The notes below the pieces were generated by a model. That model was not told where the DNA came from and ran no database searches. It saw only the letters and a list, made by a program, of their open reading frames with translations. 42,751 bases of DNA, taken from NCBI GenBank assembly GCA_902525585.1, contig CABZHQ010000014.1, positions 1-42,751 of the forward strand. Direction: 5' to 3'. Below are positions 9,508-34,706 of this stretch, piece after piece; the first letter of the stretch is position 1, and each line of letters opens with the position of its first letter. The position numbers were made by a program, and so were the translations under genes. Source of the DNA: an uncultured Prochlorococcus sp. (GTDB lineage: Bacteria; Cyanobacteriota; Cyanobacteriia; PCC-6307; Cyanobiaceae).

Positions 9508-10458
9508 TTAGAGATTTTGAATTCCTTTTACAGCTTTTATTAATTCTTTAGTAATGCCCTTTTCACTCATTGAATGACCAGCATCATTAACAATAATTAA
9601 TTCAGAATTCTTTAATTTCTTATTTAGATCCCAAGCGCTCCTAACAGGGCAAACAACGTCATACCTACCTTGAATTATTTTTGTTGGAATCGATTCTATT
9701 GTTTTTATATTTTTCAAAATAAAATCATCTTCTAAGAAAATATTATTAATAAAATAATGACATTCGATCCTTGCAAATGCATCTGAAAAAGAATTAACTT
9801 CAGACTTATCAAAATCGAATTTTTTGTTTATTAAATGACTAGTTGAGAGTTCCCATTTTGTCCAAGCTGCTGCTGCTTTTGATCTAACATTTGCATCTGA
9901 TGATATTAGATATTTATAAAAAGAACTTATCAAATCATTTCTTTCTTCTTTTGGTATCACAGAAATATATTCTTCAAATTCATCTGGGAATATCTCACTT
10001 GCACCATATTGATAGAACCACAATAATTCAAACTTTCTACATAAAAATATTCCTCGCAAAGTTAAGCTTATAACTCTTGAGGGATTTTTAATTGCATATA
10101 TAAGTGAAAGTGTTGAGCCCCAAGATCCACCAAACAAATGCCAACTATCTATCTTTAAAAGGATCCTTAATTTTTCAATATCATCAACTAAATGATTAGT
10201 CGAATTTTCTTTTAATTCGGAGAAAGGAGTTGAAGAACCGCAACCTCTTTGGTCAAATTGAATAATATCGAATTTATCTGGGTCAAAGTATCTTCTATAT
10301 CTTGGTTGACTTCCTCCACCTGGACCTCCATGAATAACAAGAATTTTTTTGCCATTTGGATTACCAGATCTTTCCCAATAAATAGTATGAATATCACTTA
10401 CTTGTAAAAAACCCTTTTCACGTACTGCAATTTTCGGAAACAAGACTTGATCTTTCAT
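9508..10458 (-). CDS. pip: Proline iminopeptidase (alpha/beta hydrolase, S33)
   Basis: The enzyme releases N-terminal proline from peptides in the cytosol. It has the S33 oxyanion motif VIHGGPGGGSQPRYRRYFDP (46-65) and FDQRGCGSS near 73. The nucleophile elbow is FGGSWGSTLSLIYA with Ser near 115. A late RYDVVCP supplies the acid Asp and NDAGHSMSEKG the His. The length of 316 aa is typical. The start ATG at 10458 matches the family's usual N-terminus. About 75 bp upstream of it lies the terminator at 10534-10563. Confidence 0.93.
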   Translation of the reverse strand: MKDQVLFPKIAVREKGFLQVSDIHTIYWERSGNPNGKKILVIHGGPGGGSQPRYRRYFDPDKFDIIQFDQRGCGSSTPFSELKENSTNHLVDDIEKLRILLKIDSWHLFGGSWGSTLSLIYAIKNPSRVISLTLRGIFLCRKFELLWFYQYGASEIFPDEFEEYISVIPKEERNDLISSFYKYLISSDANVRSKAAAAWTKWELSTSHLINKKFDFDKSEVNSFSDAFARIECHYFINNIFLEDDFILKNIKTIESIPTKIIQGRYDVVCPVRSAWDLNKKLKNSELIIVNDAGHSMSEKGITKELIKAVKGIQNL

Positions 10459-10533
10459 TTTTAAATATTTTTAATCACTTTATTAATCTATATTATCCAA
10501 AAATAAGTCTAGTTTAGATGAATTTTGTTTAAC

Positions 10534-10563
10534 AAAAAAAGGACTGCTTGTACAGTCCTTTTT
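10534..10563 (-). terminator. Strong Rho-independent terminator ending the 10565-10850 transcript
   Basis: GGACTG and CAGTCC (10541-10546, 10553-10558) form a 6-bp GC-rich stem with loop CTTGTA. It is flanked by seven A on the left and five T on the right. Read on the minus strand, the stem is followed by seven T, so it works best leftward, though it may be bidirectional. No protein gene ends here on either strand, which implies a non-coding transcript. Confidence 0.8.
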
Positions 10564-10850
10564 AATATTTGATTTCCTTCTTACAGGATATAAATTACAT
10601 ATTTTAAAGTCTATTTACTCATAAACCTAGAATACGTGAATTCGGGGATTTCTCTCGATAATTTCAGTCCCTATTGTCGCTAGTAATTATAAAGCGAAGT
10701 CTTATCAGACTAATTGATTGAACTTTAATTTTCGAATAATCCCATTCTCAGGAATACGCTTCCTATATTTTGGAATTTGCTAAATTTCAGGCGGACTATC
10801 AATCATTTAGATTGCCTCCGAACTCAACATTTATAAATTACTCCTTTTTA
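10534..10850 (-). ncRNA. Candidate non-coding RNA, about 300 nt
   Basis: The 10459-10967 gap has no ORF longer than about a dozen codons on the minus strand, yet its middle is unusually GC-rich for this genome. Reading leftward, it contains the inner hairpin AATC-TAAAT-GATT (10801-10813) flanked by AGGC/GCCT. It also contains AGGAA-GCGTA-TTCCT (10750-10764) and AGTCT-GATA-AGACT (10698-10711), then the terminator at 10534-10563. Several perfect short hairpins ending in an intrinsic terminator are what a stable small RNA looks like. It does not match tmRNA, RNase P RNA, SRP RNA or Yfr1 as I know them. 6S RNA is not excluded. The 5' end is a guess. Confidence 0.5.
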
Positions 10851-10967
10851 TATTTTCAGTAAATCCGTAAATATGCTGATTTACTTTTTTCTTAATTTGT
10901 AAGAGGATTTTAATGATCCTTTGTTTTTTATAGATAAATATAAAAATTAAAATCTATGATCCCTTAT

Positions 10968-11150
10968 TTATTCAGATTCATAGAGCAAAATAGATTCAAT
11001 TATTCTTTTATCACTATCAGAAAGTTTATAATCTTCTAATTTCCACTCAACAAATTTTACACACTCATCAATAGAAGGATTCTTGTTCCGGCACTTACGC
11101 CACTCTCTAATCCAATCTGCCAAGGCAAAAGTTATTTTTGTAGTAAGCAT
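10968..11150 (-). CDS. Small hypothetical protein, 60 aa
   Basis: The protein starts at MLTTKITFALADWIREWRKC (ATG at 11150). The frame extends three codons further to a GTG/ATG pair, but those would overlap the upstream frame. It is helical, with RNKNPSIDECVKFVEWKLED in the middle and a final KRIIESILLYESE. It follows 2 bp after the restored end of the frameshifted gene 11153-11292, so the two look like a two-gene operon. Function is unknown. Confidence 0.65.
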   Translation of the reverse strand: MLTTKITFALADWIREWRKCRNKNPSIDECVKFVEWKLEDYKLSDSDKRIIESILLYESE

Positions 11151-11152
11151 AT

Positions 11153-11292
11153 TTACCAATCAGGGTAATTAAAATCTCCGCCAATAGGTTCTTCATAAAT
11201 TCCCCTTCTTTTATACCTTTATCATATTTTTCAATAATCTTTTTATAAGAAGCTATTGAGGGAAATAAATCTCCTATATAAATGGGTTCCAT
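11153..11292 (-). pseudogene. Small hypothetical gene with an apparent single-base frameshift
   Basis: The ATG at 11292 opens MEPIYIGDLFPSIASYKKII and continues in frame to about 11210. From there the natural-looking ending RRGIYEEPIGGDFNYPDW lies in the -1 frame and stops at 11153, 2 bp before the next gene's ATG. The crossing point is a run of four A after GGTAT; a fifth A would join both parts into one protein of 46 aa. Without it, the first frame runs on into the next gene to 11107. It could be a real mutation, a sequencing error in the homopolymer, or slippage on AAAA during expression. Confidence 0.6.
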
Positions 11293-29022: not shown

Positions 29023-29140
29023 ACCTGGCATTGAGCTATTTTCTCAAGGGGCTACCCCCTAAATATTTTCGCCGCTGATGCGTTTCACAACCGAGTTCGA
29101 GATGGATCGGAGTGGTTCCACATCGCCATGAACACCAGGA
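29023..29140 (-). rRNA. rrf: 5S ribosomal RNA
   Basis: Reading leftward, the 5' end TCCTGGTGTTCATGGCG pairs with the 3' end CCAGG. CCACTCCGATCCATCTCGAA and the GAAACGC region are typical of cyanobacterial 5S. The length of about 118 nt is correct. It is the last gene of the rRNA operon. The ends are good to a base or two. Confidence 0.93.
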
Positions 29141-29147
29141 TAGTATG

Positions 29148-29166
29148 AACCTTGAGAACTGCATAG
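29148..29166 (-). other. 3' strand of the 23S rRNA processing stem
   Basis: This 19-base segment (AACCTTGAGAACTGCATAG on the plus strand) is complementary, with one mismatch, to 32185-32203 on the other side of the 23S gene. In the precursor the two sides would form a long helix bringing the 23S ends together, the normal target of RNase III-type cleavage. Confidence 0.8.
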
Positions 29167-29205
29167 AAAATTATATATATTAAAAACAATAAATTAAGTT
29201 TATTT

Positions 29206-32080
<2,875 letters not shown>

Positions 32081-32184
32081 ATAACTTCAAAATTGAAGCA
32101 TCAGCTTAATAGAATTGTTATTAATGCATTCGCACAAATAATAAATCTGCATCATTAAAGATGCTTATTGTCTTTAAAAATAAT

Positions 32185-32203
32185 CTATGCAGTTGTCAAG
32201 GTT
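32185..32203 (-). other. 5' strand of the 23S rRNA processing stem
   Basis: Complementary to 29148-29166 over 19 bases with one mismatch. Together they bracket the 23S gene. The rest of the 32081-32335 spacer contains no ORF and no tRNA. Confidence 0.8.
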
Positions 32204-32335
32204 CTCTGAAAACAATGAAATTAATTCAATGAGTCCAGCATCTTAATGATTACATTAGGAAGCTAGATTCTTTCAGAATTTGATCACAACTCAAAATATT
32301 TCCTTTCTACCGGCTATGGAAGAGGTGGTAATCAG

Positions 32336-32408
32336 TGGAGGTAAGCGGACTCGAACCGCTGACATCCTGCTTGCAAAGCAGGCGCTCTACCAACTGAGCT
32401 ATACCCCC
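32336..32408 (-). tRNA. trnA: tRNA-Ala (UGC)
   Basis: Lies in the 16S-23S spacer. Reading leftward, the acceptor GGGGGTA pairs with TACCTCC, the anticodon loop CTTTGCAAG reads UGC, and the T arm has GGTTCGAGTCC. No CCA is encoded. The order tRNA-Ile then tRNA-Ala is standard for this operon. Confidence 0.95.
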
Positions 32409-32420
32409 AACATAGAGATA

Positions 32421-32494
<74 letters not shown>

Positions 32495-32620
32495 AGGAAA
32501 AATAATGGGTGTGACCTAGAAAAACTTAGGAAATGAAATTCTTAATAAATTAAAAACGTGAGATACCGATCGACCTAAGGTGACAAAATAATAATATTAA
32601 ACATTTTGTTGTCTCCCTGT

Positions 32621-34103
<1,483 letters not shown>

Positions 34104-34706
34104 TGTTCAAATCCTTTTGTAGATAAATCTACTCAAATTGAATTGCTTTATCCAAATAAAAACTTCAGTTTTTGAATTTAGTTTCAGCCTCCTTAAATTT
34201 TAAGGATTACATTGAGTGCACGTTAAAAATATTTTTAAAGTGACTTTCCAAGATCTCAGATCCGTTTGCATCAAAGCTAAAAGTTAGCAATTGATGACAT
34301 TTTTATATATTCTTGACGGGACCTCACACCTTTATTGCATATACATCTTGAAATAACTAAAAAAAATTTAGTTGATCTTGACGCAATAAAAGCATCAGTT
34401 CCTAAGTTTTTAAATTTTCTAGGTGCAGAGTTAAACAACTAGTGGTTAACTCATTTCGAAGGTAAAAACCTTCTTCTGGCTGAAAATAATGATCGAAATC
34501 AAATCTCCAAAAAATTCATTTATTTACCAAAAATTAGATTTAAGATAATTTCCTGAATAATGCAAAAAGAATATTTCTGCCCAGAAGAAAATACTAAACC
34601 ATCCAACAGTAATTGTGCAACCTTTTATACAAAAATTTTTTATTAATTTTTTATTTGATTAAAGTCTCGTTAAACAACTAGGCTTAAATAAAGGGATATA
34701 AATGAA
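34104..34706. promoter_or_regulatory. Divergent spacer: rRNA leader/promoter side and invertase upstream region
   Basis: This 600-bp spacer has no credible ORF. The left part is the 16S leader, with a palindromic CCTTAAATTTTAAGG at 34191-34205. TTTATTGC (34332-34339) and GCAATAAA (34383-34390) form an inverted repeat in the middle. A GAGTTAA/TTAACTC stem (34428-34452) and two copies of a 13-bp repeat lie to the right. The rRNA promoter must be here, but I cannot fix its -35 and -10 with confidence. Confidence 0.5.
34430..34442. repeat. 13-bp direct repeat, copy 1 (copy 2 at 34669-34681)
   Basis: GTTAAACAACTAG occurs exactly at 34430-34442 and again at 34669-34681, the latter 26 bp before the invertase ATG. 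The first copy overlaps an inverted repeat (GAGTTAA at 34428, TTAACTC at 34446). Repeated operator-like sequence upstream of a single gene suggests a binding site, but could also be an AT-rich coincidence. Confidence 0.5.

What the first reader, a model, noticed from the sequence alone, without database searches (positions are those of the whole stretch)
10534..10850. Structured, ORF-free block with terminator: candidate new small RNA
Between pip and the next gene lies about 500 bp without a coding frame, yet with a GC-enriched centre, three perfect short hairpins and a strong leftward terminator that no gene uses. This is the best non-coding RNA candidate of the window. I cannot match it to a named cyanobacterial RNA.
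Basis: partly seen in the sequence, partly recalled or inferred. Interest (0 to 1): 0.7.

Follow-up and report, generated by a model that had tools for sequence, protein, structure and literature searches.

The report
Known antisense small-RNA pair Yfr8/Yfr9
The block is a pair of overlapping small RNAs, Yfr8 and Yfr9, read from opposite strands and already described in the marine cyanobacterium Prochlorococcus; it is real and strongly conserved, but it is not a new RNA, and its exact job is still unknown.

Summary
Window 10603-10828 matches Rfam RF02360 (Yfr8/9) end to end: 264.6 bits, cut-off 40. In strain MED4 two 290-nt RNAs on opposite strands were mapped there by Northern blot and 5' RACE (PMC2518516).

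The pair is found in 62 of 68 genomes of the genus and 0 of 332 others. The overlap is 94.7% identical on average, against 70.6% at fourfold sites of neighbouring pip.

Two points go beyond the passages I read. The structural evidence is stronger on the Yfr8 strand, whereas Rfam's model runs along Yfr9. The longest Yfr9-strand frame of MED4 is closed in 44 of 62 genomes, this one included, which counts against the published peptide-toxin idea. Most likely Yfr9 is a phage-induced antisense RNA acting on structured Yfr8; this is inferred.

The parts
10539..10828 (-). Yfr8 RNA, 290 nt in MED4, the more strongly structured partner (ends transferred from MED4, good to a few bases)
   Evidence: MED4 coordinates 339952..340241 placed through the G152 match at 339952-340177 and the alignments; fold z -5.72 in the window; covariation
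   Evidence: perfect 11-bp stem; hairpin plus T run found in 61 of 62 genomes by a strict test, the exception (L048) has one stem mismatch
10604..10893 (+). Yfr9 RNA, 290 nt in MED4, antisense to Yfr8 (ends transferred from MED4)
   Evidence: MED4 complement(339887..340176); same placement as Yfr8
10858..10885 (+). terminator hairpin of Yfr9, followed by TTTTTT
   Evidence: inverted repeat I7; hairpin plus T run in 61 of 62 genomes, the exception (L062) has a short T run
10604..10828 (.). 225-bp overlap of the two RNAs; 10603-10828 is the Rfam RF02360 match, drawn on the plus (Yfr9) strand
   Evidence: 264.6 bits, model positions 1-226 of 226
10809..10819 (.). AGATTGCCTCC, one of four runs of 10 or more bases identical in 62 of 62 genomes (others 10698-10711, 10780-10794, 10797-10806)

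Best explanation
This is the Yfr8/Yfr9 locus of Prochlorococcus: two 290-nt RNAs made from opposite strands, overlapping by 225 nt, each with its own terminator (this identity alone: about 0.97 likely). The conserved fold is chiefly that of Yfr8, the minus-strand RNA, and Yfr9 is its antisense partner. On phage attack Yfr9 rises while Yfr8 stays constant; the two pair along 225 nt, the duplex is probably cut by RNase III, and free Yfr8 falls. Yfr8 probably acts as a structured RNA on other RNAs or on a protein, not through a peptide. Shown, in MED4 and by others: both transcripts, their sizes and 5' ends, the rise of Yfr9 after infection, the decay times. Shown here: placement, terminators, conservation, stronger structural signal on the Yfr8 strand, no conserved Yfr9 peptide frame. 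Inferred: duplex formation in the cell, RNase III cleavage, Yfr8 as the acting partner. Unknown: its targets.
For: Rfam match end to end. MED4 coordinates agree with the match to within one base and both 3' ends fall on terminators. Yfr9 raised 1-3 h after phage infection with Yfr8 constant; decay 19.7 min for Yfr8 and 6.9 min for Yfr9. Both RNAs give bands of 180, 220 and 290 nt; a 220-nt band would fit a trimmed 225-bp duplex (my inference). Fold z below -3 in 15 of 15 genomes for Yfr8 and 2 of 15 for Yfr9. Covariation on the Yfr8 fold: 8 pairs changed on both sides, shuffled mean 3.1, reached by 1 of 500. Overlap 94.7% identical on average against 70.6% at fourfold sites of pip. RNase III-like sequence in 4 of 4 genomes searched.
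Against: No RNA data from the window's organism. No sign yet that Yfr8 falls when Yfr9 rises: in the passages read Yfr8 is described as constitutive in that time, which does not favour destruction of Yfr8. In 2 of 15 genomes (MED4 and L062) the Yfr9 z-score is slightly the lower. The Yfr9 fold also beats most controls on covariation score (6 of 500 shuffles reach it; 0.046 against at most 0.021 when slid) and on cells paired (0 of 500), although not on pairs changed on both sides. Four of the eight double-change pairs of Yfr8 lie in its terminator or 3' tail, outside the overlap. The RNase III matches are all below the family's curated cut-off. No target was sought.
Confidence: 0.5

Rival explanations
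1. Type I toxin-antitoxin pair, as the 2008 paper suggested: Yfr9 carries a small toxic peptide (44 aa in MED4) and Yfr8 is the antisense antidote.
For: Overlapping RNAs of unequal stability, one induced by phage; the paper reports a 44-aa frame in Yfr9 in MED4 and three other strains; the 40-aa frame I found is open in 18 of 62 genomes.
Against: The frame is closed in 44 of 62 genomes, the window included, with TAA at 10726-10728 in 43 of them, while the RNA is nearly unchanged; the paper itself notes loss in two strains. I could not find a 44-aa frame in MED4; the longest with a start on that strand is 40 aa from TTG, so the frame tested may not be exactly the published one. The stable RNA is Yfr8, not the proposed toxin RNA.
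Confidence: 0.12
2. Yfr9 is the main regulator: its invariant GCCUCC stretch, which resembles the anti-Shine-Dalgarno end of 16S rRNA, pairs with ribosome binding sites of mRNAs after phage attack, and Yfr8 is the sponge that keeps it silent.
For: AGATTGCCTCC (10809-10819) is identical in 62 of 62 genomes; Rfam drew its model on this strand; Yfr9 is the partner regulated by phage. The likeness to 16S rRNA is recalled, from no call.
Against: Fold energy and pairs changed on both sides favour the other strand; the same bases form the invariant 5' stem of Yfr8, which explains their conservation as well; no target search was made.
Confidence: 0.15
3. Yfr8 is the 5' leader of pip with a terminator that acts as an attenuator or riboswitch, and Yfr9 is an antisense RNA to that leader.
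For: Yfr8 lies on the pip strand, and its terminator ends 77 nt before the pip start codon; pip is beside the block in 62 of 62 loci and in 114 of 118 named loci.
Against: MED4 shows discrete RNAs of up to 290 nt. The stretch 10493-10535 between terminator and pip is 74.9% identical on average, little above the fourfold sites of pip at 70.6%. G390 keeps an intact pip without the block. No antiterminator was sought systematically.
Confidence: 0.08

Closest known systems
Yfr8/Yfr9 of Prochlorococcus MED4, Rfam RF02360 (Steglich et al. 2008, PMC2518516)
   Same: Full-length Rfam match; same antisense arrangement, both terminators, same neighbour on the pip side by position.
Type I toxin-antitoxin systems with antisense RNA (hok/sok is the example named in the paper)
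   Same: Antisense RNA pair from one locus with different stabilities.
   Different: No conserved toxin frame: closed in 44 of 62 genomes; no toxicity data.
Yfr6/Yfr14 of MED4 (PMC2518516)
   Same: The other overlapping RNA pair of MED4 with one partner raised early in phage infection.
   Different: According to the paper the 33-aa Yfr6 peptide is highly conserved; not examined here.

Membership tests
Rfam RF02360 (Yfr8/9) | Covariance-model score at or above the gathering score | tested here: met
   264.6 bits against 40, model 1-226 of 226
Rfam RF02360 (Yfr8/9) | Transcribed on both strands, about 290 nt each | not testable with these tools
   Known for MED4; in the window only terminators at the expected ends
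Rfam RF02360 (Yfr8/9) | Conserved secondary structure | tested here: met
   Yfr8 fold: 98.7% of cells paired, 8 pairs changed on both sides, 1 of 500 shuffles (35 of 62 loci). The Yfr9 fold, the strand of the Rfam model, has 1 such pair, 338 of 500
Type I toxin-antitoxin system | Conserved small peptide frame on one RNA | tested here: not met
   Yfr9-strand frame closed in 44 of 62 genomes, the window included; the published 44-aa frame itself was not identified
Type I toxin-antitoxin system | Antisense RNA overlapping the toxin RNA | tested here: inconclusive
   The antisense arrangement follows from the MED4 coordinates; no RNA data for this genome
Type I toxin-antitoxin system | Toxicity relieved by the partner | not testable with these tools
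   Needs expression experiments
   At E up to 1 the only other match is STnc540, 16.3 bits against a gathering score of 38, E 0.94, taken as chance

The most novel reading that the evidence does not exclude
An RNA-only phage-response switch: Yfr8 is an ultraconserved structured RNA that holds some host function in check or keeps it running, and Yfr9, induced within the first hours of infection, pairs with it and takes it out of action. It is confined to one genus, needs no protein partner at the locus and works without a toxin peptide.
Probability: 0.15. Interest if true: 0.65.

Novelty: already known. Interest (0 to 1): 0.3.

Why it matters
The locus is already in Rfam and in print, so the find itself is ordinary. 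What matters is the open question of function. An intergenic stretch nearly as conserved as the first and second codon positions of the gene beside it, present in most genomes searched of a very abundant ocean phototroph, with one RNA raised by phage, deserves a functional test. The results here narrow that test: look at the Yfr8 fold rather than at a Yfr9 peptide, and re-examine the strand on which the Rfam model is drawn.

Tried and rejected
New RNA family: rejected by the full-length RF02360 match.

Mobile origin: no match in 50,697 phage and 72,556 plasmid records by blastn, and none in IMG/VR for two patterns of conserved bases; exact patterns would miss diverged copies.

Conserved Yfr9 peptide: closed in 44 of 62. 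A first frame count failed on five loci where its anchor was not found; one search replaces it.

Spread beyond the genus: 0 of 332 genomes of 58 other genera (strict filters; 318 of these are not listed by name and are taken as other genera from the kinship order of the list). A laxer search of 20 of the 338 non-matching genomes found nothing above the cut-off, best 23.8 bits, on a contig other than that of pip. Nine further genomes of the genus, drawn as relatives of G390, all match; the 7 of other families drawn with them do not.

The six genomes of the genus without a match: in four (G179, G306, G386, G396) pip was not found either and in G331 it is cut at what looks like a contig end, so these may be assembly gaps; G390 has a full pip (76% identical) with the next gene's match starting about 220 bases from the pip start and no block between.

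Of the 80 listed by title (L075-L154) 77 are titled Prochlorococcus and 3 uncultured Synechococcaceae (L101, L128, L136); the titles of the other 38 were not shown.

Limits of my own tests: the z-score run on all 62 loci timed out and was repeated on 15 chosen by eye with 40 shuffles each. The counts use 35 of 62 loci, chosen by eye to leave out near-duplicates; an earlier count on all 62 gave 9 doubly changed pairs for Yfr8 and 1 for Yfr9, without controls. No target prediction, tree or search of the pip promoter was made.

Full report
What was checked. The gap 10459-10967 lies between pip (minus strand, 9508-10458) and a 63-aa frame (minus strand, 10968-11159) and holds one ORF of 30 aa as its longest. 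Six perfect stems of 5 bp or more lie in 10534-10893, against a mean of 0.94 in 200 dinucleotide shuffles, none of which reached six. The GC-rich centre is rich only relative to its flanks.

What it is. Rfam gives a full-length match to RF02360, "Cyanobacterial functional RNA 8/9", at 10603-10828 plus strand, 264.6 bits; it is the only match in the window's genome, which is 76% complete. In the family search one genome, G152, has its match at 339952-340177 on the minus strand, on a contig of 1,657,990 bases, which I recall as the length of MED4. The paper that described the RNAs (PMC2518516; passages and section 7 seen) lists Yfr8 at 339952..340241 and Yfr9 at complement(339887..340176), each with bands of 180, 220 and 290 nt, lengths from Northern blots verified by 5' RACE. 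The Rfam match is thus the overlap of the two RNAs (to within one base), and the Rfam model reads along the Yfr9 strand.

Placing both RNAs in the window. Through the alignments Yfr9 runs from about 10604 to 10893 on the plus strand and Yfr8 from about 10828 to 10539 on the minus strand. Each 3' end falls on a terminator: AGTAAATC...GATTTACTTTTTT from 10858 for Yfr9, and CAGTCCTTTTTTT read leftward at 10563-10536 for Yfr8. A strict hairpin-and-T-run test finds each in 61 of 62 genomes; the two exceptions are a stem mismatch (L048) and a short T run (L062). The terminator "that no gene uses" is the end of Yfr8.

Distribution. Of 400 genomes of the family searched, 62 match, all of one genus: 62 of 68 there and 0 of 332 elsewhere (strict filters). 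Twenty of the non-matching genomes were searched again with laxer filters, and none passed the cut-off. Nine further genomes of the genus all match. pip is next to the block in 62 of 62 loci and in 114 of 118 loci from named records; the other four loci end at or close to the block. Of the six genomes of the genus without a match, G390 has a full pip and no block; in the others pip is not found or is cut at what looks like a contig end. No match was found in phage or plasmid records or, for two exact patterns, in viral contigs.

Conservation. Over the 1891 pairs of the 62 genomes, mean identity is 94.7% in the overlap, 94.3% in the Yfr9 tail and 88.3% in the Yfr8 tail before its terminator. 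This compares with 95.5% at first and second codon positions of pip, 70.6% at its fourfold sites, and 74.9% in 10493-10535 between the Yfr8 terminator and pip. The overlap is more conserved than the fourfold sites in 1890 of 1891 pairs, and more than first and second positions of pip in 739 of 1891.

Which strand is structured. Full-length Yfr8 has fold z-scores below -3 in 15 of 15 genomes tested (mean -4.2; the window -5.7), Yfr9 in 2 of 15 (mean -2.3). For the overlap alone the means are -2.8 and -1.7, with 7 and 2 of 15 below -3. In 2 of 15 genomes, MED4 and L062, the full Yfr9 z-score is slightly the lower. On 35 of the 62 sequences the Yfr8 consensus fold (78 pairs, -60.8 kcal/mol) has 98.7% of cells paired, 8 pairs changed on both sides (shuffled mean 3.1, reached by 1 of 500) and 25 such cells (0 of 500); with partners slid the most is 6 pairs and 7 cells. 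The Yfr9 fold (64 pairs, -38.2 kcal/mol) has 1 such pair (338 of 500 shuffles reach it; slid versions have up to 4). In its favour, its cells paired (0 of 500), double-change cells (6 of 500) and covariation score (6 of 500; above every slid version) do exceed most controls. Many helices are the same stretches read on the other strand, so some echo is expected. Shuffles ignore relatedness. Three of the eight Yfr8 pairs lie in its terminator and one in its 3' tail. I conclude that Yfr8 carries most of the structural selection, in line with the RNAz values printed in the paper (0.9996 for Yfr8, 0.68 for Yfr9), but the Yfr9 signal is not nil.

Peptides. The paper proposed a toxin-antitoxin system with a 44-aa frame in Yfr9, noting its loss in two strains. 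I could not find a 44-aa frame in MED4; the longest with a start on that strand is 40 aa from TTG, at window-equivalent 10714-10836. This frame is open in 18 and closed in 44 of 62 genomes, the window among the closed ones. On the Yfr8 strand an 8-codon frame (MID-x-PPEI) follows GGAGG at 8 or 9 nt in 180 of 180 sequences. But 118 of these were picked with a pattern that fixes most of it, the sets may share genomes, and the three variants seen all change the amino acid, so this is not evidence of coding.

How it may work. Published for MED4: Yfr9 is raised 1-3 h after phage infection while Yfr8 is constitutive; decay times are 6.9 and 19.7 min (PMC2897979, passages). With 225 nt of full complementarity, duplex formation is expected, and the shared 220-nt band would fit cutting of the single-stranded tails. 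RNase III-like sequence exists in 4 of 4 genomes searched, all below the curated cut-off, and as two pieces on different contigs in the window's assembly. I therefore favour Yfr9 as an antisense regulator of Yfr8 on infection. The constant level of Yfr8 in the published data does not favour its outright destruction, so masking by pairing is as possible as cleavage. These steps are inferred, and the targets are unknown.

Literature. Searches for Yfr8 and for Yfr9 with Prochlorococcus returned three papers and one; one of the three is unrelated physics. Of the two relevant ones, PMC2897979 states that the functions of Yfr1 to Yfr21 are unknown and PMC2518516 offers the toxin-antitoxin suggestion. 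Two wider searches were seen as listings only, apart from passages of PMC7368042, none of which, as shown, deals with this pair. The library lacks most subscription papers, so later functional work may exist.

Noticed in passing
window 10603-10828 and Rfam RF02360: The Rfam family is named Yfr8, but its model reads along the strand that the 2008 paper calls Yfr9 and covers only the overlap of the two RNAs.
   Followed up: partly
window about 10782-10818, minus strand: Near the 5' end of Yfr8, GGAGG is followed at 8-9 nt by an 8-codon frame (MID-x-PPEI, stop) in 180 of 180 sequences held, with GGAGG inside a predicted stem; partly true by construction of the search pattern.
   Followed up: partly
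L073 (G390), pip locus: A genome of the same genus keeps pip (76% identical) but has no Yfr8/Yfr9 between it and the next gene: loss, or the state before gain.
   Followed up: partly
window 10968-11159, minus strand: A 63-aa frame beside the block, matched in 55 of 62 loci by tblastn, in some only partly or elsewhere in the locus; product unknown.
   Followed up: no
window 29023-34104, minus strand: The window carries a 16S, two tRNA, 23S and 5S rRNA cluster; ordinary.
   Followed up: no
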